Shown here one piece after another: positions 28,441 through 40,187 of a stretch of DNA of 42,513 nucleotides. The first letter of the stretch is position 1. The number at the start of each line of letters is the position of its first letter. A program made the translations under genes and the position numbers. The stretch is from positions 1-42,513 of the forward strand of contig CANQME010000013.1 in NCBI GenBank assembly GCA_947624815.1, read 5' to 3'. This DNA is from an uncultured Lachnospiraceae bacterium. Its GTDB lineage: Bacteria > Bacillota > Clostridia > Lachnospirales > Lachnospiraceae. Below the pieces are notes generated by a model that saw only the letters and a list, made by a program, of their open reading frames with translations, was not told the origin of the DNA and did no database searches.

Positions 28441-31400
28441 ATGGTAAGAAGAGCAGGAAAAGGTTATCGGAAATTTATGGTGTTTGCATTGGTAGCGGTG
28501 ATGGGGGCCACAGGAATTGGGGGAGATGTCAGGATGGCGTCTGCATCAGAGAGGCCGGCTGGGTCTGGAAGTGTCATTGAGGAAGTTGTTTCCGATAATC
28601 AGTGGCAGTCCGGCGGCAATGAAGCTGAAGCGGGAGGGGCCGCGGAGAGCTACGGCAGGGAAGATGAAAGAGAAGCCGCAGGAATCGGCAGTGAGGCAGA
28701 GACCAGCGCTTCGGCGGAAGAGGATGGAGCGGAAGAAGAAAGCAAGGCCGCAGAGAGCGGCGGAGAGGAAACCGGCGACGCCGCGGAGAGCGAAAGCACC
28801 GAAGAGGAAAGCGACGCCGCAGGAAACGGCAGTGAGGAAGAAACCAGTGCAGCGGCGGAAGGCGACGGAGCGGAAGACGAGAGCGAAGCCGCAGAGAGCG
28901 GCAGCGCCGAGAAACGCAGGGGTGCGGATGAGACTTCAGGCAATAACGACAGTGAAGAAGAAAACGAAGCCGCAGGAAACGGAGAGACGGCAGCGAACTG
29001 GGCCGTGAAGAATGACAGCACGGAGAGTGAAAGCGGAGCTGTAAACAGTGACGGAAGGGAAGACGAAGCAGCGGCCGCAGGAAACGAGGCTTACGGAAGC
29101 GGGACAGCCGACGAGGGATCAGGGGTACAGAATACGGAGGCTGCAGGGAGAAAGCGGTCACGGAGAAAAGCGGCGATGGCGCCGCAGGGCGCAGATGCAC
29201 AGGAGGGTGCGCCGCAGGGAGATATGTCGCAGGGAAAAGAACCGGAGATCGCGTTGACGGCAGTCTACGAGGGACTGTTTGACGAGCCGTCTGTGGACAG
29301 GGTTCAGCAGGTATCCGTCAACGTCAGGGTTGAACGGAACCAGGAGTTGGTATACGTGGATCAGATTTCGATCACAGGGACGGAAAAGGACGGAGAAGTT
29401 GTATACGATTTCTATTATCCTCTTCCGGATGAATATACACGCTATGGGAGAGTCACAGTAACAGGAAGTTCCGGTTTTGCCCTGAGTTATCAGAATGGTG
29501 CCGTGTCCGGAATGGGACGGAATCTGGAAGACGGTGGGAGCTACAGCATTACGGTTTCGGTGACGGCGCAAACGATGCAGTACGGTGTCAAGCATGTTTT
29601 TCAGGGACTGAAAGAAACGGTGGTTGCGACGGCAGCCGTCGGGATCATAGGGATGATGACAGACGCTCAGCCGATAGAGCATGAAGGTTATGAGGTCGTA
29701 GAGATAGCGAATGAGATTCTGACAACCATAGGCCAGATCATTCAGATCACCTATGCACCCAAAGACGGAGCTGTGGATTCTCGTTATACTGTAAGATATA
29801 AGGATGCAGTGTCGGGAACGGAACTGGCGGATCCTGTGACCAGAATCGGCGCGGCGAATACGACGGTAACGGTAGAGGCAAGAGGATTCGAAGGTTATCT
29901 TGCAGATGCAGTCAGCAAATCTCTGCTGCTGCAGCCGGGTGAGAATGAGATCACATTCCTGTATACCAGGATCGCGGGACTGACCTACCGGGTTGAGTAC
30001 CGGCGCGGCGACGGAAGCGTGATCGAGGTAAGAAGCGGACAGCCGGTTCTGAGCTCCGGTTTCGTGGTGAATGCGAATCAGGATGTGGTTCGCGATCAGG
30101 CCAGGAAGGGCTACAGACTGGACGGAGATTCCCACCGGAATTTCTCCCCGGATCCCACAAAGGACGGAGACGCGCCTGAGAATACCGTAACATTTCAATT
30201 CGTTCCGGAGCAGTATCACATTTCCTATGAAGGTCTGGACGGAAGCGGATGGGAGAATATCAACCCGACAGACTATACGGTAGAGGACGAGATCAGGCTT
30301 GCAAATCCGGTAAGAGACGGATATGAGTTCGTAGGTTGGGCGCTTGGCAGCGGTACGACGGTAAAGGAAGCAGGCAGCGGCCATCAGGGGCTGGATGTAG
30401 TGATAGAGAAGGGAACGACAGGAAATCTGTCATTCCGGGCCGTCTGGCAGGAAAATGCGCCGTCCGAGAAGGACGATGAACCGAACGATCCTGGGAAGGA
30501 GCAGGGCAACCAGCCGAAAACGGAAAACGGAACCGAGACCGGCGGCAACGGAGCCGGCGGAAACCAGACCGAATCCGGTGGTGAAAACGAGAATACCGGG
30601 GACGAGACAGGTTCAGGCGGTGAGAATGAGAATACCGGAGACGAGACCGGTTCTGGCAGTGAGAACGGGAATACCGGAGACGAGACTGGTTCAGGCCATG
30701 AGAATGAGAACACCGGAGACGAGACCGGTTCTGGCAGTGAGAATGAGAATACCGGAGACGAGACCGGTTCTGGCAGTGAGAATGAGAATACCGGAGACGA
30801 GACTGGCTCGGGCGGTGAGAACGAGAATGTCGGAGATGAGACAGGTTCGGACAGTGAGAATGAGAATACCGGAGACGAGTCTGGCTCAGGAAATGAAAAC
30901 GAGAATACTGGGGATGAGACTGGCTCAGGCAGTGAGAATGAGAACACCGGAGACGAGACAGGTTCAGGCAGTGAGAATGAGAACGCCGGAGACGAGACAG
31001 GTTCAGGCAGTGAGAATGAGAGCACCGGAGACGAGACAGGTTCAGGCAGTGAGAATGAGAGCACCGGAGACGAGACAGGTTCGGACAGTGAGAATGAGAA
31101 CGCCGGAGACGAGACAGGTTCGGACAGTGAGAACGAGAATACCGGAGACGAGTCTGGCTCAGGAAATGAAAACGAGAATACAGGGGATGAGACTGGCTCA
31201 GGCAGTGAGAATGAGAACACCGGAGACGAGACCGGTTCAGGCAGTGAGAATGAGAACACCGGAGACGAGACAGGTTCGGACAGTGAGAATGAGAACGCCG
31301 GAGACGAGACCGGTTCGGACAGTGAGAATGAGAATACCGGAGACGAGTCTGGCTTGGGCGGTGAGAACGAGAATGTCGGAGACGAGACCGGTTCAGACAG

Positions 31401-32430
31401 TGAGAGCGAGAATGTTGGAAACCGGTCTGAGGCAGACGATGAGAACGAGGAATCTGAGAATAAGTCTGAGGTAGATGACGGGGGCGAGGAAGTTGAGAGC
31501 AAGTCCAAGGTAGATGATGATAGTCAGAACGTCGGAAGTAAATCCGAGGCAGACGATGAGAATGCGGATGCAGAGGGTAAGTCTGAGACGGGTGCCGAGA
31601 ACGAGGATTCTGAGAATAAGACTGAGGTTGCCAATGCGGGTCAGAATGTCGAGAATCAGCCCAGTGCAGGAAGTGGAAGCTCAGCTAGCGAAAGTGCAGG
31701 AAATGGAACTGCAGCCAGCGGAACCGCAGCCGGAGGAAACGCTGGCAGCAGAAGCCGTCTCAGAAGGAGCGTTGCCGGACCGAGTGCAGTCGCTGCCGTT
31801 CAGCCGCAGGGAAGCGATGCAGAAGAAGGCCAGCCCGCAGCCGTTCAGCCGCAGGGAAGCGGTGCAGAAGAAAGTCAGCCCGCAACCGGTCAGCCGCAGG
31901 AAAGCGCCGCGGAAGGAAGCCGGTCTGCAGCGGATATGCCGGCGGAGAGCCAGGCGGACAGCGCCGGGAGCGGATCCGTGTTCAGTTCTGGTCAGGAGCA
32001 GCAGAGGGCAGAGCGTTCGAAAAACGAAGCTCTGAGAAAGGAAGCGGAGAGCGAAGCGCCGAAGGAGTCGGAAGATGCGGAAGTGTCTGCAGAGCAGAGA
32101 GCGCAGGAAGCTTCGAAGAAAGCAGAATCTTCGCCCGAGTCCGCAAGCAAGAAAGAGGCGAAAGGACAGAATGCGCAGGAAGACGACAAGTCAGAACAGG
32201 AGGTGATTGTAAAAGCAGAAAACGGCGGAGATTATCGGAACGGTCAGAGCGGATCGGGAGCATCCTTCCGGATCGGCGGACCGGCCGGAATTGGCAGCAT
32301 CCAGCTTCTCAGGCTGTTCCGGGCGATTGCGGAATGGCTGCAGAAAGGGCTGATCATGGCAGCCGCGTCCGGCGCGCTGGTACTGGGATACTGGAAGTAC
32401 CGCCGGTATCGGGGGCTTCTGGGCAGATGA
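28441..32430 (+). CDS. Large repetitive acidic surface protein
   Basis: A 1329-residue exported protein. A signal peptide (GYRKFMVFALVAVMGATGIG, cleavage near ASA) is followed by a Glu/Ser/Ala-rich acidic region to ~260. Beta-rich domains cover ~265-680: a MucBP-like part (YTVRYKDAVSGTELADPV) and an InlB B-repeat-like part (DGYEFVGWALGSGTTV to LSFRAVW). Then come 21 tandem 13-residue units of the type GSENENTGDETGS (713-985), a long disordered Glu/Gln/Ala tail, and a C-terminal membrane helix (GLIMAAASGALVLGYW) with a basic end. There is no LPxTG motif, so a membrane anchor rather than sortase linkage is likely. The repeats resemble the SD-repeat stalks of MSCRAMM adhesins. AAAGGAG lies 6 nt before the ATG. 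An adhesin or stalk role is inferred. Confidence 0.85.
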   Translation: MVRRAGKGYRKFMVFALVAVMGATGIGGDVRMASASERPAGSGSVIEEVVSDNQWQSGGNEAEAGGAAESYGREDEREAAGIGSEAETSASAEEDGAEEESKAAESGGEETGDAAESESTEEESDAAGNGSEEETSAAAEGDGAEDESEAAESGSAEKRRGADETSGNNDSEEENEAAGNGETAANWAVKNDSTESESGAVNSDGREDEAAAAGNEAYGSGTADEGSGVQNTEAAGRKRSRRKAAMAPQGADAQEGAPQGDMSQGKEPEIALTAVYEGLFDEPSVDRVQQVSVNVRVERNQELVYVDQISITGTEKDGEVVYDFYYPLPDEYTRYGRVTVTGSSGFALSYQNGAVSGMGRNLEDGGSYSITVSVTAQTMQYGVKHVFQGLKETVVATAAVGIIGMMTDAQPIEHEGYEVVEIANEILTTIGQIIQITYAPKDGAVDSRYTVRYKDAVSGTELADPVTRIGAANTTVTVEARGFEGYLADAVSKSLLLQPGENEITFLYTRIAGLTYRVEYRRGDGSVIEVRSGQPVLSSGFVVNANQDVVRDQARKGYRLDGDSHRNFSPDPTKDGDAPENTVTFQFVPEQYHISYEGLDGSGWENINPTDYTVEDEIRLANPVRDGYEFVGWALGSGTTVKEAGSGHQGLDVVIEKGTTGNLSFRAVWQENAPSEKDDEPNDPGKEQGNQPKTENGTETGGNGAGGNQTESGGENENTGDETGSGGENENTGDETGSGSENGNTGDETGSGHENENTGDETGSGSENENTGDETGSGSENENTGDETGSGGENENVGDETGSDSENENTGDESGSGNENENTGDETGSGSENENTGDETGSGSENENAGDETGSGSENESTGDETGSGSENESTGDETGSDSENENAGDETGSDSENENTGDESGSGNENENTGDETGSGSENENTGDETGSGSENENTGDETGSDSENENAGDETGSDSENENTGDESGLGGENENVGDETGSDSESENVGNRSEADDENEESENKSEVDDGGEEVESKSKVDDDSQNVGSKSEADDENADAEGKSETGAENEDSENKTEVANAGQNVENQPSAGSGSSASESAGNGTAASGTAAGGNAGSRSRLRRSVAGPSAVAAVQPQGSDAEEGQPAAVQPQGSGAEESQPATGQPQESAAEGSRSAADMPAESQADSAGSGSVFSSGQEQQRAERSKNEALRKEAESEAPKESEDAEVSAEQRAQEASKKAESSPESASKKEAKGQNAQEDDKSEQEVIVKAENGGDYRNGQSGSGASFRIGGPAGIGSIQLLRLFRAIAEWLQKGLIMAAASGALVLGYWKYRRYRGLLGR
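30577..31434 (+). repeat. 21 tandem 39-bp coding repeats plus one degenerate unit
   Basis: Unit of 39 bp, 13 codons, consensus GSENENTGDETGS, in perfect register from 30577 to 31395; a 22nd unit to 31434 has decayed. Variants (DSENENTGDESGS, GNENENTGDETGS) recur in the same order at units 8-11 and 15-18, showing a second-order duplication of about seven units. All six frames are open here because the unit is a multiple of three. Confidence 0.95.
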
Positions 32431-32492: not shown

Positions 32493-32521
32493 TCATAACG
32501 TGCGCCGCTGTTTCATAAGAT
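32493..32521 (+). promoter_or_regulatory. sigmaE-like promoter of spoIIID
   Basis: TCATAAC (32493-32499), 14 bp and CATAAGAT (32514-32521) resemble the sigmaE consensus (kmATATT, 14-15 bp, CATACAnT), with the start expected ~19 nt before the TTG codon of spoIIID. In Bacillus spoIIID is sigmaE-dependent, which fits. Confidence 0.5.
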
Positions 32522-32546: not shown

Positions 32547-32675
32547 TTGAAGGATTATATCGAAGAACGTGCGGTGGACATCGCCAATTACATCATAAAC
32601 CACAACGCGACGGTAAGGCAGACGGCGAAGAAATTCGGGATTTCAAAGTCAACGGTACATACAGTAATCTCATAA
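32547..32675 (+). CDS. spoIIID: SpoIIID N-terminal part, interrupted by the element
   Basis: Reads MKDYIEERAVDIANYIIN.. then ATVRQTAKKFGISKSTVH, the well-known SpoIIID N-terminus with its helix-turn-helix. SpoIIID is the mother-cell transcription factor that follows sigmaE. At residue ~39 the frame leaves SpoIIID exactly at the repeat ACGGTACATA and ends after four foreign codons (TVIS, TAA 32673-32675). The TTG start is the only one available in frame (a stop lies just upstream) and has GGGGG 5 nt before it. The remainder of the gene is at 36797-36967. As it stands a 42-residue product lacking the C-terminal DNA-binding segment would be made. Confidence 0.92.
   Translation: MKDYIEERAVDIANYIINHNATVRQTAKKFGISKSTVHTVIS
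32652..32661 (+). other. Left attachment core (attL)
   Basis: ACGGTACATA, identical to the copy at 36797. It lies inside the spoIIID codons for Thr-Val-His. Inside the element, 14 nt further on, CAGAACGGTT (32676-32685) is the exact inverse of AACCGTTCTG near the right end. Confidence 0.9.
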
Positions 32676-32789
32676 CAGAACGGTTTGCTGAGTTGCCCCT
32701 GCAGGCAAGGTGCCACGCTGTGACATACTGCAGCAGGATCCGTCCGGATACGCCCAGATGAGTCCGGGCCGGCTCTTTCATTGCCGTTA

Positions 32790-32818
32790 TTGTCTTTTGA
32801 AGAATAATATGGTACAAT
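32790..32818 (+). promoter_or_regulatory. sigmaA promoter of the motor-like gene pair
   Basis: TTGTCT (32790-32795), 17 bp and TACAAT (32813-32818) lie ~70 nt before the MotA-like ATG. The pair can therefore be expressed in vegetative cells from inside the element. The rest of the 32676-32888 gap shows only the att arm. Confidence 0.7.
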
Positions 32819-32888
32819 AATTCTGATAACACAAAGTACAGTTCTGTTTTGTCAGACTGGTGAGGATTACAAAGGAGGGGTCATTCAA

Positions 32889-34046
32889 ATGAGAAACAAG
32901 CTGTATGTTGTACTGTTTCCGCTGTATGTACTGGTATTCGGATTTATCCTGTATATCAACGGAGTCTTTTCGGGAACTGTGACATCGCCCAGTAATCTGA
33001 TCATCAATGTTGGATTTCTGATCGTCATCGGCATCCTTTTCGTGATTTCAGCCTCCTGCTTTATCCGGCTGAACCGGTGCAGCGACGCGCTCGTGGACGC
33101 TGCGGACCGGCTCTGGAAGGAGCAAAAGGAGAATGACGGCTCCCTTTGGGAGCTTTATGCAGACCGGAAGGATGTCTTCCGTAATTCCGTTCTTGACGAG
33201 GCGTTCAAGCGATTCCAGAAGCGCATGGCGCGGTGCCGCACGAAGACCGGCTATTCGGATCCCTGCGACCTGGAAGAGTATATCAATGAAGACCTGCTGG
33301 ACCGGGTTGCGTCCACCCATTATAATTCCGCCATCGCCGGGACGCTGACCGGTCTGGGAATTCTGGGAACCTTCCTCGGACTGTCCATGGGTCTGGCGTC
33401 CTTTAACGGCAACGACATTTACACGATCTCCGATAACGTGGGACCGCTTCTGGACGGCATGAAGGTCGCGTTCCATACCTCCGTATACGGGATCTTCTTC
33501 TCCCTGGTATTCAATTTCATTTACCGGAGCATCATGGCCGACGCCTATGAGAAGCTGGCCGAGTTTACGGAGCTTTTTCGGGAATACGCGGCGCCGGGCG
33601 TGAACCGCGCGGACGAAAACGGCCGTGCTATGCTGATCTACCAGGCGAACATGGCGAATTCCATGAAGGCCATTCAGGAGCTGCTGAGAGGGAACGCGGC
33701 GGAGCAGGTGAAGGGCGTGGACGCGATCGTGAAGAGGTTCGTGGGGCAGATGTCCCAGACCCTCGGAACTGATTTCGAAATGCTTGGCAGATCCTTAAAT
33801 TACGCCGGAACAAGCCAGGAACAGAGCGCCAGAGCCTATCGGGAAATGGAGACGGCCGCGCGGCAGCTTCAGGAGGCTAACCGGGCCACGCTGCGCAGCC
33901 TGGAGCAGCTGCTCAGGCGCCAGGAGGAGCTGGGGAAGAAGCTGGAAGAACAGGGGGAAAAGCTGGATGAAATGTCGGATTTTCTGAACGATGAGATCAC
34001 CAGCCAGTTGTATACATTTAATCAGATGAGGGAGACGTATGAATAA
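32889..34046 (+). CDS. MotA/TolQ/ExbB-family proton-channel protein (ZorA-like)
   Basis: A 385-residue membrane protein with the four-helix MotA/ExbB plan: helices at ~5-23 and ~36-58, a cytoplasmic loop, then TLTGLGILGTFLGLSMGL (~150-172, the conserved G-rich channel helix) and FHTSVYGIFFSLVFNFIY (~193-212). A ~170-residue cytoplasmic tail follows that is strongly coiled-coil (LEQLLRRQEELGKKLEEQGEKLDEM). This matches the ZorA/MotA-like superfamily: stator units that use ion flow to do work. AAAGGAGGGG lies 8 nt before the ATG. It overlaps the next gene by 8 nt, so the two form one complex. No zorC or zorD gene is present, so Zorya defence is not claimed. Confidence 0.85.
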   Translation: MRNKLYVVLFPLYVLVFGFILYINGVFSGTVTSPSNLIINVGFLIVIGILFVISASCFIRLNRCSDALVDAADRLWKEQKENDGSLWELYADRKDVFRNSVLDEAFKRFQKRMARCRTKTGYSDPCDLEEYINEDLLDRVASTHYNSAIAGTLTGLGILGTFLGLSMGLASFNGNDIYTISDNVGPLLDGMKVAFHTSVYGIFFSLVFNFIYRSIMADAYEKLAEFTELFREYAAPGVNRADENGRAMLIYQANMANSMKAIQELLRGNAAEQVKGVDAIVKRFVGQMSQTLGTDFEMLGRSLNYAGTSQEQSARAYREMETAARQLQEANRATLRSLEQLLRRQEELGKKLEEQGEKLDEMSDFLNDEITSQLYTFNQMRETYE

Positions 34047-34980
34047 TAACAGGAGAAGAAGGGCCGTCTTTGAGGAGCCCAGCTTTTGGCAGTCCTTTTC
34101 GGATATGATGTCCGCTCTGACGTTGGTATTCATTCTGATCATTGCCATTACGCTGGCGATCTACAGACAGAAAACGACGGATCTGGAGAATACCCAGACC
34201 GAACTGAACGCGGCCAAGCAGGAGCTGGATCTGGCCAGGCTGGATCTGGACCGTTCCAGGGAGGAGATCGAAGCGTCCAACCGGGAGCTGGCAGACTCGC
34301 TGGCCGAGCTGCAGGCGGCGTACGAGCAGGCCGCGCTGACACAGGAGGAACTGGATGCTGCGTACCAGCAGATCGACGAGGCTCAGCAGCAGATCCAGAC
34401 GGCGCAGCAGGAGCTGGAGGACACCAGAAGCGAGCTGCAGGATATCGTGGGAGTCCGGACCGATATTATCGGGGAGCTTCAGAGCCGGTTCAACAATTCG
34501 TCCATGCGGGTCGATCCGCAGACGGGTTCCATTACATTTTCCTCCGACGTGCTGTTTCGGTATAACAGCTCGGAGCTGACGGAGGAAAGCCAGAGCGTCC
34601 TGCGCGAGATCATTCCGATGTATCTCGGGGTATTGCTGCAGGACAATTATCTTCCGTACATAGCGGAGATCATTATCGAAGGACATACGGACACGGACGG
34701 AACCTACGACAGCAACATGACGCTGTCCTTCAACCGGGCCGATTCCGTCGCCAAGTTCTGCATGAATCCCGGCAACGGATTGGCGCAGGAGCAGATCGAC
34801 CGGTTCCAGCGGCTTCTTACGGTCAACGGAAGATCCTACAGCGATCCGATCTACGAGGCTCCTGACCGGGTGGATATGGCCTCGTCCAGGCGTGTAGAGA
34901 TCAAGTTCCGGCTGAAGGAGGACGAGATGATCGAAAGGATCGCCGAGATCCTTCGGGGACAGGAAGTTCCGGAAGAATGA
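34039..34980 (+). CDS. MotB/OmpA-family peptidoglycan-binding motor partner (ZorB-like)
   Basis: A 313-residue protein with one N-terminal membrane helix bearing the MotB-type acid (FWQSFSDMMSALTLVFILII; Asp at ~residue 21, the expected ion-binding site). A ~100-residue extracellular coiled coil rich in Glu/Gln follows (~50-145), then an OmpA-like peptidoglycan-binding domain with ITFSSDVLFRYNSSELTEES, IIIEGHTDTDGTYDSN and LSFNRADSVAKF (~155-300). Translation is coupled to the MotA-like gene. Together they look like a wall-anchored ion-driven motor. It is an unusual cargo for a sporulation intervening element. Confidence 0.88.
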   Translation: MNNNRRRRAVFEEPSFWQSFSDMMSALTLVFILIIAITLAIYRQKTTDLENTQTELNAAKQELDLARLDLDRSREEIEASNRELADSLAELQAAYEQAALTQEELDAAYQQIDEAQQQIQTAQQELEDTRSELQDIVGVRTDIIGELQSRFNNSSMRVDPQTGSITFSSDVLFRYNSSELTEESQSVLREIIPMYLGVLLQDNYLPYIAEIIIEGHTDTDGTYDSNMTLSFNRADSVAKFCMNPGNGLAQEQIDRFQRLLTVNGRSYSDPIYEAPDRVDMASSRRVEIKFRLKEDEMIERIAEILRGQEVPEE

Positions 34981-35007
34981 GTTTTGGCGGTAGTGCGGCC
35001 GTCCGGG

Positions 35008-35036
35008 GCATATTCTGAGAGCGTCCCACATAGGAT
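35008..35036 (+). promoter_or_regulatory. sigmaE-like promoter inside the element
   Basis: GCATATT (35008-35014, full match to the -35 consensus kmATATT), 14 bp and CATAGGAT (35029-35036; CATA and final T match) lie between the motor pair and the small ORF. The expected start is near 35043, 25 nt before the ATG at 35068. It has the same spacing and a similar -10 as the spoIIID promoter. It would place the recombinase unit under mother-cell control. Confidence 0.42.
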
Positions 35037-35067
35037 GGGACAAAAGCAGAAAGCGGGACAGGAATCG

Positions 35068-35238
35068 ATGGCAGAGCGAAAGCTGAAGTACCGGTTTTTT
35101 GATCCCAACCCCGAGGGAGAGACGGCCGACTACCTGTTAAAGCTGCTGATTGAAAAATATGCCGGCTCGGCTGCGGCAGAGATCAGAACGTATGGGCAGG
35201 ACCAGCCCGAAAAAATGGTCAGCCAGTCCCCCGTCTGA
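35068..35238 (+). CDS. Small recombinase-associated protein
   Basis: A 56-residue ORF (start MAERKLKYRFFDPNPEGET, then ADYLLKLLIEKYAGSAAAEI). I recall similar short proteins with a 'YRF..PNP...TADYLLK..IE' pattern near site-specific recombinase genes of Clostridia, but this is from memory and unchecked. It is acidic-basic mixed, soluble and without a clear DNA-binding motif. It lies 33 bp before the recombinase ATG, but a terminator overlaps its stop. A recombination directionality factor is an attractive but unproven role. An upstream ATG at 35035 lies within the predicted promoter. Confidence 0.6.
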   Translation: MAERKLKYRFFDPNPEGETADYLLKLLIEKYAGSAAAEIRTYGQDQPEKMVSQSPV

Positions 35239-35256
35239 GGAGGGACTGGTTTTTTT
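35223..35256 (+). terminator. Terminator/attenuator before the recombinase gene
   Basis: CCAGTCCC (35223-35230) pairs with GGGACTGG (35242-35249), followed by T7. It covers the stop of the small ORF and ends just before the recombinase SD (AGGAGGG at ~35259). Recombinase expression from upstream promoters must pass it. Confidence 0.85.
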
Positions 35257-35271
35257 CAGGAGGGACAGCGG

Positions 35272-36807
35272 ATGGATATTGCGGCGTACTGCAGAGTATC
35301 GACGGACAAGCAGGATCAGCTGAACAGTCTGAAGGCCCAGAAGGAGTTCTTCAGCGAGTACACCAGGCGTACAGGAGACCATCTTGTACGCCTGTACGCC
35401 GACGAGGGAATCTCCGGGACGAAGCTTAATCGCCGCAGGGAATTCCTGCGCATGATGGAGGACGCGGAGCGCGGCATGTTTCAGCTGGTGATCGTCAAGG
35501 ACATTTCCCGCTTTGCGCGGAATACGGTGGATCTGCTTCAGAGCATCCGGCGCCTGAAGGCTCTGGGCATAGAGACGCGGTTCCTGACCGCGGACATGAC
35601 CAGTATGGGGAACAGCGAGTTCGTGCTGACCATCTTCGGCGCGCTGGCGCAGGAGGAAAGCGCCGGCATCTCCAAGCGGGTGAAGTTCGGGAAGAGGCTG
35701 AACGCCGAAAAGGGACGCGTGCCCAATCTCGTGTATGGGTACAACAAGAGGAAGGGCGAGTATTTTGACATGACGGTCAATGAGGCGGAAGCCGCAGTCG
35801 TGCGCCAGATCTTTGCCTGGTATGTCCGCGAGGGCTGCGGCTGCGCGAAAATTGCGGCGCGGCTGAATGAGCGCGGCTTGCGGACGAAGCGGAATTTCCC
35901 GTGGAACCAGAAGGGCGTCTGCGGCATTCTCTCGAATCCGCTGTATACCGGGAAGATCATCAACGGGAAACAGGAAGTCGAGGACTTCCTGACCGGGCGC
36001 AGAGTGGAAAAGGACGAATCCGAGTGGCTGATCGTGGACAGGCCGGAACTACGGATCGTGGAACCGGAGCTGTTCGCGGAGGCGCAGTCCGTCCTTCGGT
36101 CGCGCAGGGACGCGTTCGGAGACGGAGACGGGCGGCCGGGCGGCCGGTATCTGTTTTCCACACTGATCCAGTGCCGGGACTGCGGCCGGTCCTTCCGGCG
36201 GACGGTCCGCACATACAGGAATACATACGTCCGCTGGGTCTGCTCCGGACATAACGCCGGGGGCGACGGGACCTGTTCCAATGCGGTGACCGTGGACGAA
36301 GCCGAGCTGACCGGCGTTCTGCAGGAGTATTTTACCGGCATTCTGAAGACCAAAAAGGACGCCGCCCGCTGTGCGGCCGCGGAGCTTCGGCGGATCTGGA
36401 AGGCCGCAAAGGACAGCGGCTGTTCGAAGAAGGAGATCAGGGCGCGGCTTTCCAGACTGCGGACCGCCAGACAGCGGTATATGGACATGTACACGGACGG
36501 TCTGATCTCCCGCGGGGAATTAAACGAGAGGATCGGAACCATGCGGGAGGAGATCGACCGGCTGGAGGAGGAGCTTAAGCAGGCGAATAGCCCGCTGCCG
36601 AAGGAGGAACAGCTGGAAACGGTTTTCAGGAACCTGTTCGGGACGGCGGACGGAGCTGTCTGCGTAAGCCGTCTGACGAATGCGGAGCTAAAGCGGATCA
36701 TCCGGAAGATCGAGGTGGACAGGGACGGGAACGTGGATATCCATCTGCGGCTGTTCCGGGATACTGGATCCGGCGGAACCGTTCTGACGGCAGGTTACGG
36801 TACATAA
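35272..36807 (+). CDS. Large serine recombinase of the spoIIID element
   Basis: A 511-residue site-specific recombinase. The catalytic domain opens with AAYCRVSTDKQDQ (nucleophile Ser10) and continues with DEGISGTKLNRR and VKDISRFARNTVDLL. A recombinase domain follows (VYGYNKRKGEYFDMT, GILSNPLYTGKIINGK), then a zinc ribbon (QCRDCGRSF with later CSGHN and TCSNAV) and a coiled coil (~residues 400-440). It reads toward the right end. Its TAA stop (36805-36807) uses the last two bases of the attR core and one spoIIID base. The SD AGGAGGG lies 6-7 nt before the ATG. All key residues are intact, so it is probably active. It is the functional counterpart of SpoIVCA of the sigK element. Confidence 0.95.
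   Translation: MDIAAYCRVSTDKQDQLNSLKAQKEFFSEYTRRTGDHLVRLYADEGISGTKLNRRREFLRMMEDAERGMFQLVIVKDISRFARNTVDLLQSIRRLKALGIETRFLTADMTSMGNSEFVLTIFGALAQEESAGISKRVKFGKRLNAEKGRVPNLVYGYNKRKGEYFDMTVNEAEAAVVRQIFAWYVREGCGCAKIAARLNERGLRTKRNFPWNQKGVCGILSNPLYTGKIINGKQEVEDFLTGRRVEKDESEWLIVDRPELRIVEPELFAEAQSVLRSRRDAFGDGDGRPGGRYLFSTLIQCRDCGRSFRRTVRTYRNTYVRWVCSGHNAGGDGTCSNAVTVDEAELTGVLQEYFTGILKTKKDAARCAAAELRRIWKAAKDSGCSKKEIRARLSRLRTARQRYMDMYTDGLISRGELNERIGTMREEIDRLEEELKQANSPLPKEEQLETVFRNLFGTADGAVCVSRLTNAELKRIIRKIEVDRDGNVDIHLRLFRDTGSGGTVLTAGYGT
36797..36806 (+). other. Right attachment core (attR)
   Basis: ACGGTACATA, identical to 32652-32661, at the end of the recombinase gene. The inward arm AACCGTTCTG (36777-36786) mirrors the left arm. 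It joins directly to the spoIIID 3' part. Confidence 0.9.
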
Positions 36808-36967
36808 AGACGTCACAGAGCGGCTGGAGCATATCAATCCGTCCCTGGCGGCCCGCGCGCGCATCGTCCTGGATGTGAACAAGTCGGAGCGCCATATCCG
36901 CGGCGGACTGGCGACGAGGGAGAAGTACCAGCACCGTCTTCAGATGTGCAGCAAAGAGGACGAGTGA
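36797..36967 (+). CDS. spoIIID: SpoIIID C-terminal part, separated by the element
   Basis: In frame from ACG-GTA-CAT the segment reads TVHKDVTERLEHINPSLAAR, then VLDVNKSERHIRGGLATREKY and ends ..CSKEDE with TGA 36965-36967. The C-terminal basic segment (SERHIRGGLATREKY) is the second DNA-contacting region of SpoIIID. It has no start codon or SD of its own. Joined to the 5' part by removal of 4,145 bp it gives a 91-residue SpoIIID, the normal size. Confidence 0.92.
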   Translation, partial: TVHKDVTERLEHINPSLAARARIVLDVNKSERHIRGGLATREKYQHRLQMCSKEDE

Positions 36968-38386: not shown

Positions 38387-39241
38387 TTACCAGGTGATCA
38401 GTTCATCCAGAAGCTCCTGCAGCTCCTTGCTGGATTTGGTCAGATAGATCCGCGTCGTTTCGATATTCTCGTGCCCCAGCAGGTCTGCCAGCAGGGAGAT
38501 ATCGTTGAATTTCGCCAGGAAATTGATGGCGAAGCGGTGACGGAAGGAATGGGGATACACCGTATCCTCGTTGATTCCGTACCGTCTGGCATAGTGCTTC
38601 AGCTGCCAGCGGATCCCGCGGCAGCTGATGGGACGGCCCTGCCGGTTGACGAAGAGGAAGCCGCTTTTCTGCTCCTTCGTCTCACACCAGGCCAGGGCTT
38701 CCTCAGCCAGGGCGTCTGGCAGGTAGATGCGGCGCAGCTTGCCGCCCTTGGAGTACAGATCCAGGTATCCCAACGCCAGATGCTCTACCTTGATCTGCGT
38801 CAGCTCGCTGACCCTGGCGCCGGTCGCGCCCAGGAAGCGCACCACGAAATACCACATGGTCTTCTTATCCTTCTTCAGCCGCCGTTTCAGGTACTCATAG
38901 TCCCGGTTGGATATGACGGCGTCGGAGAAGGATTTCTTCTGAATCTTGACGGACTGCAGGTGGAAGCCCTTAAGCGGCAGCCACATGTCTTCGTCGTATT
39001 CCACCAGAAAGCGTGTGAAACGGTTCATGGCGTGAATCCGCAGATTCACGGTAGAGGGACGGTACCTGCTGATCAGGTCGCTGCGGAAGCGGCTCAGGTT
39101 CTCGGTGCTCATGACCGGATAACGGGAATAAAAGAGCCGTACGCTGCCGGTGTAGGCAGTGACGGTATTGGGAGAGAGACTGTTCTTATTCAGCTGATCT
39201 TCGAATTCCTGAATCAGCCTTTTCTGTGCTGAAGTTATCAT
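38387..39241 (-). CDS. Tyrosine recombinase, second of a tandem pair
   Basis: A 284-residue XerC/D-like recombinase. An N-terminal SAM-like domain (SPNTVTAYTGSVRLFYSRY) is followed by a catalytic domain with the full set of residues: Arg in ATGARVSEL, Lys in YSKGGKLRR, HSFRHRF (His, Arg), LGHENIETT (His) and Tyr in TRIYL. It begins 6 bp after the stop of the first recombinase, so the pair is co-expressed. No inverted repeats marking an invertible segment are obvious beside it. Confidence 0.92.
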   Translation of the reverse strand: MITSAQKRLIQEFEDQLNKNSLSPNTVTAYTGSVRLFYSRYPVMSTENLSRFRSDLISRYRPSTVNLRIHAMNRFTRFLVEYDEDMWLPLKGFHLQSVKIQKKSFSDAVISNRDYEYLKRRLKKDKKTMWYFVVRFLGATGARVSELTQIKVEHLALGYLDLYSKGGKLRRIYLPDALAEEALAWCETKEQKSGFLFVNRQGRPISCRGIRWQLKHYARRYGINEDTVYPHSFRHRFAINFLAKFNDISLLADLLGHENIETTRIYLTKSSKELQELLDELITW

Positions 39242-39247
39242 ATGAAA

Positions 39248-40117
39248 TCACCATTTTACAATCTGGTTGACAAGCTTTTTCTGTTCGGTAGGACTTCGGT
39301 GCAGGTAGATCCGGGTAGTCTCGATATTCTCATGTCCCAGAATATCGGAGAGCATGGCCAGATCCCCGCTGACCTCGATGAATTTTTTGGCAAACAGATG
39401 CCGGAAGGCGTGGGGGTGCAGGACGGAGACGTCCAGACCGTACAGCGCCTCGAATTTGCGCATCTGATAGCGGATGCCGGACGGCGTGAGCGGGTCGCCG
39501 AAGCGGTTCAGGAAGACGAAGCCGCTTCGGCGCTTCTCATGGGAGAGCCAGGTCATGCACTCGCTGCGGACCCGCAGAGGGATATAGACCCGCCGGGATT
39601 TGTTCCCCTTCGAATAGACGTCCATATATCCGCGGCGCACATCCCCGACCTTCAGGCGTACAAGCTCGCTGATCCGCAGTCCGGTGGTGGCCATGATGCG
39701 GATAATGAAATAGTAAAGCCGGTTCCCGTCGCGCAGCAGACAGCGTTTCAGATACTCATAGTCTGCCTGGGAGATGACATTTTCCAGAAATGATCTCTGC
39801 TGGACATGGACCATGGCCATATGAAGGTCCGTCAGGTGGAGAAACTCCAGAAAACAGTTCATGGAGCGGATCCGGAGGTTGACGGTCTGGGGGCTGTAGT
39901 GCTCCAGAAGGTAGCATTTGTAGAGCCGGAGATTGTTGTAGTTAATGGTTCCGTACAGCTCAAGAAACTGTTCGGCGCCGTACAGGTAGGAGTGAACCGT
40001 GCTGTCCGCCAGCTGCCGCCGCGCCAGATAGCTGCGGAAATCGGCCAGCATCCGGTCGCGGGTGGAGCCGCCGTCCTCAGCGGGAGGCAGCCCGTGTCCG
40101 GTTTGTTTTTCTGTCAT
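39248..40117 (-). CDS. Tyrosine recombinase, first of a tandem pair
   Basis: A 289-residue recombinase, clearly paralogous to the next gene. Catalytic residues are in TTGLRISELVRL (Arg), YSKGNKSRR (Lys), HAFRHLF, LGHENIETT and RIYLHRS (Tyr). Start at 40117 (MTEKQTG) is chosen with AAGGA ~10 nt upstream; a frame to 40171 would run into the promoter. It is divergent from sipL. The shared 200-bp gap has a sigmaA promoter for this gene and three Spo0A-type boxes 17 bp upstream of its -35. Paired recombinases of this type can drive DNA inversion or act as a heteromeric unit; the target is not visible here. Confidence 0.92.
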   Translation of the reverse strand: MTEKQTGHGLPPAEDGGSTRDRMLADFRSYLARRQLADSTVHSYLYGAEQFLELYGTINYNNLRLYKCYLLEHYSPQTVNLRIRSMNCFLEFLHLTDLHMAMVHVQQRSFLENVISQADYEYLKRCLLRDGNRLYYFIIRIMATTGLRISELVRLKVGDVRRGYMDVYSKGNKSRRVYIPLRVRSECMTWLSHEKRRSGFVFLNRFGDPLTPSGIRYQMRKFEALYGLDVSVLHPHAFRHLFAKKFIEVSGDLAMLSDILGHENIETTRIYLHRSPTEQKKLVNQIVKW

Positions 40118-40158
40118 TTCAATCACGTCCTTTTGTTCGTTAAAAATATGTATTCTTA

Positions 40159-40187
40159 AGTTTATCCACATGAAAAATGAAAATCAA
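40159..40187 (-). promoter_or_regulatory. sigmaA promoter of the tyrosine recombinase pair
   Basis: On the minus strand TTGATT (40187-40182), 17 bp and TAAACT (40164-40159), ~42 nt before the ATG at 40117. Confidence 0.6.

What the first reader, a model, noticed from the sequence alone, without database searches (positions are those of the whole stretch)
32547..36967. spoIIID is split by a 4.1-kb skin-like element that precise excision would repair
Seen: the 5' part of spoIIID ends and the 3' part begins at identical 10-bp repeats (ACGGTACATA, 32652 and 36797). Deleting the 4,145 bp between them restores one open frame of 91 codons reading SKSTVHKDVTERLEHINP across the joint, with no extra or missing base. 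Between the repeats lies an intact large serine recombinase. Known: sigK, and in other species spoVFB, gerE and spsM, are split by elements removed in the mother cell. SpoIIID acts in that same terminal cell, so loss of the element there costs no inheritance. I know of no described spoIIID case but could not search. Such an element would add a DNA-rearrangement checkpoint before sigK activation.
Basis: partly seen in the sequence, partly recalled or inferred. Interest (0 to 1): 0.97.

Follow-up and report, generated by a model that had tools for sequence, protein, structure and literature searches.

The report
Removable DNA element splits spoIIID gene
In this gut bacterium the only detected copy of spoIIID, a master gene of spore formation, is cut in two by a 4.1-kb mobile element carrying its own recombinase; the element is likely removed in the mother cell during spore formation, and the same cut recurs in dozens of other bacteria.

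Summary
The halves of spoIIID meet 10-bp repeats at 32652 and 36797; removing the 4,145 bp between them gives one 91-codon frame, and no other spoIIID was found in the 87.8%-complete genome. It is one member of a large family. Of the best 80 recombinase relatives kept from a genome collection, 73 lie just before a spoIIID 3' half, and 75 of the 80 genomes have no spoIIID over the curated cut-off. In 62 genomes plus the window the halves meet at the same His codon (CA). A 56-codon gene is by far the most recurrent partner of the recombinase (62-66 of 80 loci; next gene 15); it carries a sigma-E-type promoter far more often than controls, the recombinase does not. I read it as the excision factor. 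A species pair sharing one insertion differs by 13 silent and 0 amino-acid changes in the split gene, so the halves still seem selected. A same-genus genome has the empty site; a 62-kb phage-like contig has the undivided attP. Excision itself was not observed. The mechanism is skin-like, one step above sigK; ten searches of an open library found no split spoIIID. Verdict: a real, recurrent new variant of a known kind.

The parts
32493..32521 (+). predicted sigma-E-type promoter of spoIIID, TCATAAC-N14-CATAAGAT
   Evidence: score 12.6; same place in G114 TCATAAC-N14-CATACAAT scores 16.0; predicted only
32547..32675 (+). 5' half of spoIIID (TTG start), running into a stop in the element after STVHTVIS
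   Evidence: TIGR02844 positions 1-38
32652..32661 (.). left 10-bp repeat ACGGTACATA; likely crossover dinucleotide CA at 32658-32659
   Evidence: CA at this codon in 62 genomes plus the window
32676..32685 (.). right outer arm of the attP dyad, CAGAACGGTT, on the left end of the element
   Evidence: sequence; attP symmetry around CA
32889..34046 (+). cargo: ZorA-like MotA/ExbB/TolQ membrane protein, 385 aa
   Evidence: Pfam MotA_ExbB; ZorA models below NCBIfam cut-offs; PADLOC E 6e-18
34039..34980 (+). cargo: ZorB-like OmpA-domain protein, 313 aa
   Evidence: Pfam OmpA; ZorB1 PADLOC E 3.8e-66; below NCBIfam cut-off
35008..35036 (+). predicted sigma-E-type promoter GCATATT-N14-CATAGGAT, 31 nt before the small gene
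   Evidence: score 16.6; enriched at this gene across elements
35068..35238 (+). 56-codon small gene, candidate recombination directionality (excision) factor
   Evidence: family profile E 1.7e-12 here, profile found in 66 of 80 related loci; function inferred
35272..36807 (+). large serine recombinase, 511 aa; its stop codon TAA (36805-36807) starts right after the CA core, in spoIIID sequence
   Evidence: Pfam domains; stop in the same place in 50 of 63 pairs
36777..36786 (.). left outer arm of the attP dyad, AACCGTTCTG, on the right end of the element
   Evidence: sequence; attP symmetry
36797..36806 (.). right 10-bp repeat ACGGTACATA; likely crossover dinucleotide CA at 36803-36804
36803..36967 (+). 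3' half of spoIIID, cut off from its own promoter and start codon
   Evidence: TIGR02844 positions 34-79; joined frame

Best explanation
spoIIID is split by a site-specific mobile element that is likely excised in the mother cell during sporulation, which would rejoin the gene at a CA dinucleotide. Shown from sequence: one recombinase family, with a small partner gene, sits at the same codon of spoIIID in dozens of genomes; joining the halves gives an open SpoIIID frame; a same-genus genome has the empty site. Predicted: the recombinase is made from a non-sporulation promoter and alone keeps the element integrated. Inferred: when sigma-E becomes active in the mother cell it drives the small gene, whose product acts as the excision factor; the element leaves as a circle, spoIIID (itself behind a sigma-E-type promoter) is restored, and SpoIIID then allows sigK transcription. 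The spore keeps the element, because only the dying mother cell would lose it.
For: (1) No second copy found in the genome. (2) 73 of the 80 best recombinase loci have the spoIIID 3' half within 700 nt downstream; a spoIIID over the cut-off in only 5 of the 80 genomes. (3) 62 genomes plus the window have CA at the same codon on both sides, and attP is a dyad centred there (mean symmetry 0.606, against 0.205-0.289 with the centre moved by 1-4 bases). (4) 61 joined genes plus the window have no stop in 78 codons. (5) Two species with one shared insertion (91.6% identical over a collinear 6.0 kb covering most of the element and its right flank): 13 differences in 78 codons, all silent (6e-9 under neutrality); 7 of 7 silent in the 3' half alone (6e-5). 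(6) spoIVA in 14 of 14 genomes with halves only, 106 of 109 intact, 13 of 75 with neither. (7) Sigma-E-type promoter before the small gene in 28 of 57 (shuffles 3.3), 23 of 45 after removing near-duplicates, against 48 of 823 other ORFs; recombinase not clearly enriched (11 of 78, shuffles 6.2, largest shuffle 11). Positive control: 55 of 63 spoIIID 5' halves pass the same threshold at their own promoter. (8) Small gene in 62 of 80 loci by clustering, next most common gene 15. (9) Empty site in G114. (10) Undivided attP in a phage-like contig with recombinase and small gene but no spoIIID. (11) Precedent: skin-Cd excision needs a constitutive recombinase plus the sigma-E-controlled factor CD1234 (PMC5025042 passages).
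Against: No joined chromosome junction or circle of a spoIIID element was found: strict attP pattern 0 in viral contigs; in 397 family genomes the one hit was an attR; both patterns are insensitive (the window's own attP fits neither). The window's genome is incomplete, in 207 contigs. 5 of 80 related genomes have a spoIIID over the cut-off, and in the family sample G022, G024, G036, G086, G111 and G183 have an intact copy plus a half, so excision is not needed there. 29 of 57 small genes fall under the promoter threshold, and a relative beside a recombinase without spoIIID (L146) passes it (13.6), so the promoter is not proven specific. The second closest pair, G214/G229, has 2 amino-acid changes beside 13 silent ones, both in the 3' half. 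The 3' halves were found as open profile matches, and the join was anchored on a His/Gln codon, so decayed or odd ends are less likely to be counted; no pair failed the anchor. The small protein's role rests on position and conservation; its model is one helix, mean pLDDT 74.
Confidence: 0.85

Rival explanations
1. A selfish mobile element simply uses spoIIID as its insertion site; it ends sporulation in carriers and leaves only at random, with no developmental control.
For: Elements move between hosts: G226 and G233 carry elements 92-96% identical over about 6 kb while their spoIIID genes differ at near-saturated silent sites (dS 2.08). Presence varies among close relatives: G114 (same genus) is empty, G000 is split, and G200, whose spoIIID is very close to G114's (dS 0.14), is split. 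One relative is phage-like.
Against: Silent-only change in both halves after a shared insertion; spoIVA kept in 14 of 14 genomes with halves only; sigma-E-type promoter on the small gene.
Confidence: 0.1
2. The locus is an old insertion whose halves are decaying, and sporulation is lost or SpoIIID is dispensable.
For: A few loci look degenerate: the G183 (same genome as L113) 3' match runs over 5 in-frame stops, and that genome also has an intact copy.
Against: 0 of 62 joined coding regions has a stop, with the detection bias noted above; a spoIIID mutant of C. difficile drops from 9x10^5 to 3x10^2 spores per ml (PMC3789822 passage).
Confidence: 0.03
3. Assembly error or chimera.
For: The window comes from a fragmented genome of 207 contigs; reads could not be inspected.
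Against: Same architecture in 73 of 80 other records, among them named strains on contigs of several Mb (Schaedlerella arabinosiphila DSM 106076, 6.3 Mb; Sporofaciens musculi, 5.4 Mb).
Confidence: 0.01

Closest known systems
skin element of Clostridioides difficile (in sigK; recombinase CD1231, factor CD1234)
   Same: Element splits a mother-cell regulatory gene; large serine recombinase; small partner gene under sigma-E; recombinase expressed constitutively (PMC5025042 passages).
   Different: Target is sigK, not spoIIID. CD1234 also depends on SpoIIID; here SpoIIID would be the product of excision, so the factor could depend only on sigma-E. Sequence relation of the small proteins was not tested.
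skin element of Bacillus subtilis (sigK, SpoIVCA)
   Same: Serine recombinase element inside a mother-cell gene, removed in sporulation.
   Different: There the recombinase itself is expressed specifically in sporulation (PMC5595907 passage); here the recombinase upstream region is not clearly enriched for the sigma-E motif.
gin element in gerE of Bacillus cereus ATCC10987
   Same: Non-phage cargo; tiny regulatory gene split; 9-bp overlap; serine recombinase plus helper GirX.
   Different: 28.6 kb with three recombinases; here one recombinase in 4.1 kb. A second element type found in spoIIID of G076 and G171 does carry three recombinase-like genes in a row.
vfbin (spoVFB), SP-beta (spsM), yin (yabG)
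   Same: Mobile elements in sporulation genes (listed in PMC10747680 passages).
   Different: Targets encode an enzyme subunit, a spore-surface gene and a protease; spoIIID encodes a regulator one step above sigK.

Membership tests
sporulation gene-intervening elements (skin type) | element lies inside a sporulation gene | tested here: met
   both halves match TIGR02844
sporulation gene-intervening elements (skin type) | removal between short repeats restores the frame | tested here: met
   91-codon frame on joining; 61 relatives joined without stop in 78 codons
sporulation gene-intervening elements (skin type) | element encodes a serine recombinase | tested here: met
sporulation gene-intervening elements (skin type) | element encodes a directionality factor | tested here: inconclusive
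   conserved small gene in 66 of 80 loci by profile, 62 by clustering; activity not testable here
sporulation gene-intervening elements (skin type) | excision controlled by sporulation in the mother cell | tested here: inconclusive
   sigma-E-type promoter enrichment; no expression data
sporulation gene-intervening elements (skin type) | excised circle and joined gene detected in cells | not testable with these tools
   no reads; attP pattern scans found only a phage-like contig
large serine recombinases | Resolvase + Recombinase + zinc-ribbon domains | tested here: met
   all over Pfam cut-offs
large serine recombinases | 2-bp crossover core in a symmetric attP | tested here: met
   CA in 63 of 63 pairs examined, dyad centred on it and lost when the centre is moved; cleavage itself not tested
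Zorya anti-phage system (cargo) | ZorA and ZorB with effector ZorC/ZorD or ZorE (recalled) | tested here: not met
   only ZorA- and ZorB-like genes in the element's ORF list, both below NCBIfam cut-offs

The most novel reading that the evidence does not exclude
spoIIID is a recurrent DNA switch of gut Clostridia: phages and islands with at least two recombinase arrangements converge on the codons of its recognition helix, bring a sigma-E-driven excision factor, and thereby place a DNA-rearrangement checkpoint between sigma-E and sigma-K. Carriers would use one transcription factor (sigma-E) both to transcribe spoIIID and to rebuild it.
Probability: 0.72. Interest if true: 0.92.

Novelty: new variant of a known kind. 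Interest (0 to 1): 0.88.

Why it matters
Regulated gene splitting in sporulation is reported for sigK, spsM, spoVFB, gerE and yabG. Here a regulator above sigK is split, in 14 of 200 sampled genomes of one family and in most genomes that carry the close recombinases. If excision is confirmed, it adds a DNA checkpoint at a new level of the mother-cell cascade, and warns that a split spoIIID may be scored as missing when sporulation is predicted from annotation. It also offers a two-gene recombination module (recombinase plus a 56-codon partner) with a defined attP and attB, and a case of mobile elements keeping a host gene repairable.

Tried and rejected
Sigma-E promoter on the recombinase: not supported, 0 of 78 at the threshold of 14 and 11 of 78 at 12, where shuffles give 6.2 and at most 11. 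Phage origin of the window's own element: Pfam showed no phage structural gene; PHROGs was not run on it. Contig L086 ending exactly at the core was first thought to show the excised form; rejected, because the intact spoIIID of that genome has a different core sequence and the contig ends do not overlap. MT838016 (labelled a phage) holds an attR with the spoIIID 3' half, so it is integrated DNA, not a circle. Protein search with the small gene found only itself; a profile and clustering worked. The model of the small protein is a single helix and was not searched further. Counts and dropped rows: 66 of 80 genomes have both halves; 65 5' halves were fetched (G244 looks like G028 and was not refetched); G260, G263 and G265 were dropped because the script could not read one end; second 5' copies in G227, G240 and G243 were not counted; 62 remain plus the window. 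One was too short for the codon test, leaving 61 plus the window. Four pairs (G214, G222, G231, G256) were first joined out of register and re-anchored. In the spoIVA table I had counted G115 as split; its match runs across the breakpoint to a contig end, so it is taken out here (14 instead of 15); G044, a full-length match below cut-off, was also set aside. Of the 14, G003 and G171 show one half only. The 63 promoters of the positive control include second copies of G227 and G240 and assume the start codon position.
Full report
WHAT IS THERE. The 10-bp repeat ACGGTACATA lies at 32652 and 36797 and nowhere else in the window; removing the 4,145 bp between the copies gives one frame of 91 codons. 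In the genome of the window (87.8% complete) the SpoIIID profile matches only these two halves. The genome has a sigK-like gene as one open frame and spoIVA. The element holds, left to right, a ZorA-like and a ZorB-like membrane protein, a 56-codon gene, and an intact large serine recombinase. In the same-genus genome G114 the two flanks adjoin.

HOW COMMON. In 200 genomes of the family, 109 have a spoIIID over the curated cut-off; 14 have halves only (my sorting, recount; in G003 and G171 one half was seen); G022, G024, G036, G086, G111 and G183 have an intact copy and a half. The recombinase was found at E 1e-60 or better in 15 of the same 200, the window's genome included. For one of the 5, L125, both halves lie elsewhere on the contig (G260). 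Record titles include Lachnospiraceae, Oscillospiraceae and named strains of Blautia glucerasea, Agathobaculum butyriciproducens, Schaedlerella arabinosiphila and Sporofaciens musculi. Of the 80 genomes, 5 hold a spoIIID over the cut-off. Where both halves are on one contig their distance runs from about 3.5 kb (G055) to 75 kb (G106).

THE JOINT. In 62 genomes plus the window the halves meet at the same His codon, CA being on both sides. The script anchored on a His or Gln codon before the KD motif, so this agreement is partly built in, but no pair failed. An unanchored test agrees: the joined ends of the elements form an inverted repeat centred on that CA, mean symmetry 0.606 over 30 positions, against 0.205 to 0.289 when the centre is moved by 1 to 4 bases. 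This is the pattern of a serine recombinase attP with a 2-bp crossover; the codons lie in the recognition helix (recalled). In 50 of 63 pairs the stop codon of the recombinase starts right after the core, in spoIIID sequence; in the circle the recombinase would read on, by 14 codons in 26 of these 50 and by 33 in the window. A second type of element (G132, G076, G171) sits a few bases further on; in G076 and G171 three serine-recombinase-like genes stand in a row, recognised by eye.

IS THE SPLIT GENE USED? A precise join is expected of any such insertion, so it proves little alone. First, 0 of 62 joined coding regions (61 genomes plus the window) has a stop in 78 codons; 3' halves were found as open profile matches, so decayed ones would be under-counted. 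Second, L137 and L140 share one insertion: their loci are collinear, 91.6% identical over 6.0 kb covering most of the element and its right flank, yet the split gene shows 13 differences, all silent, 7 of them in the 3' half, which is cut off from its own promoter and start codon. The pair was chosen because it is among the two closest; the other, G214/G229, has 2 amino-acid changes and 13 silent ones and only partly collinear elements. Third, spoIVA, another mother-cell gene, is present in 14 of 14 genomes with halves only, 106 of 109 with an intact gene, and 13 of 75 with neither.

WHAT CONTROLS IT? Clustering 2,140 ORFs upstream of the recombinase in the 80 loci gives one family far ahead: the small gene in 62 loci; the next families reach 15. 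By pattern it was found in 58, by profile in 66; several of the rest have little upstream sequence, but L081, L109, L112, L115 and L118 have 6 kb without it (for L109, the same element in L051 has it further upstream). A sigma-E-type promoter stands before it in 28 of 57 loci at a score of 12 or more (shuffles 3.3) and in 17 at 14 or more (shuffles 0.7); after removing near-duplicates 23 of 45; other ORFs in the same loci 48 of 823. The consensus is recalled; PMC3789822 says C. difficile sigma-E promoters resemble those of B. subtilis with ATA in the -35 element (passage). The recombinase shows no clear enrichment (11 of 78 at 12, shuffles 6.2, largest 11; 0 at 14). The same score finds the promoter of spoIIID itself in 55 of 63 5' halves, a positive control. 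In the window the small gene scores 16.6. Against specificity, a relative of the small gene beside a recombinase without spoIIID (L146) scores 13.6. The arrangement is that of C. difficile skin, where the recombinase is constitutive and the sigma-E-controlled CD1234 allows excision (PMC5025042 passages). I infer that the small protein is the directionality factor; this is not shown.

MOBILITY. G226 and G233 have elements 92 to 96% identical over about 6 kb, although their spoIIID genes are near-saturated at silent sites (dS 2.08), so elements move between hosts. One viral-collection contig of 62.4 kb has the recombinase (58% identity), the small gene with a sigma-E-type promoter score of 16.6, an undivided attP, and no spoIIID. 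In the 17.5 kb examined, PHROGs finds an endolysin and a DNA ligase, and weak tail-fibre matches. A relaxed attP pattern found only this contig in the viral collection; a strict one found none, and in 397 genomes the single match was an attR. Neither pattern fits the window's own attP, so these scans are insensitive.

KNOWN OR NEW. Searches of the open PubMed Central library (ten, the cap; two were about host species) listed no paper that I saw reporting a split spoIIID; six direct phrases gave 0 papers. Subscription papers and preprints are not in that library. Papers seen: passages of PMC10747680, PMC5595907, PMC3789822, PMC5025042 and PMC12888040; all others as listings only. PMC12888040 notes differences in spoIIID among other genes between two Anaerostipes hadrus strains with different sporulation outcomes; whether an element is involved was not checked.

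VERDICT. Shown: the split, the site, the two-gene module, silent-only change in one shared insertion, the promoter enrichment. Inferred: excision in the mother cell, the role of the small protein, and the checkpoint before sigK.

Noticed in passing
window 32889-34980: ZorA/ZorB-like pair without a ZorC, ZorD or ZorE gene in the element; an orphan motor-like cargo, below NCBIfam cut-offs.
   Followed up: partly
window 38387-40171 (- strand): Two tandem XerC/XerD-like tyrosine recombinases near the spoIIID locus, outside the repeats.
   Followed up: partly
window 28441-32430: 1,329-aa protein with a long run of GSENENTGDET-type repeats just upstream of spoIIID.
   Followed up: no
L063 (G111) and L042 (G022): A 5' half followed a few kb later by a complete spoIIID with its own start: the gene may have been repaired by a duplicated 5' part.
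   Followed up: partly
G240 contig C52 (L318, L319, L354): Three spoIIID 5' matches in a row on one strand (one of them partial), as if several elements had inserted one after another.
   Followed up: no
L035, L041, L061, L062: Second element type a few bases away in spoIIID; consecutive serine-recombinase-like genes (three in G076 and G171) and, in G076, an inverted-repeat attP TATTATGACGCCA...TGGCGTCATAATA seen by eye.
   Followed up: partly
recombinase 3' ends, e.g. window 36805-36807: The recombinase stop codon lies in host gene sequence, so excision would lengthen the protein (14 codons in 26 of 50 cases, 33 in the window).
   Followed up: partly
L066, L084: Close recombinase relatives (65-67%) whose right end joins a sequence other than spoIIID; alternative targets.
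   Followed up: no
upstream ORFs of L065-L144: A two-gene pair (ATP/GTPase-like 419 aa with a 231-aa partner) recurs as cargo in 15 of 80 loci each.
   Followed up: no
G012, G107, G182, G192 and nine others: 13 genomes with spoIVA but no usable spoIIID match, some 97-99% complete; lost, too divergent, or cut in another way.
   Followed up: no
L360 (MT838016.1): A 6.4-kb record labelled bacteriophage from human faeces carries this recombinase family and a spoIIID 3' half.
   Followed up: partly
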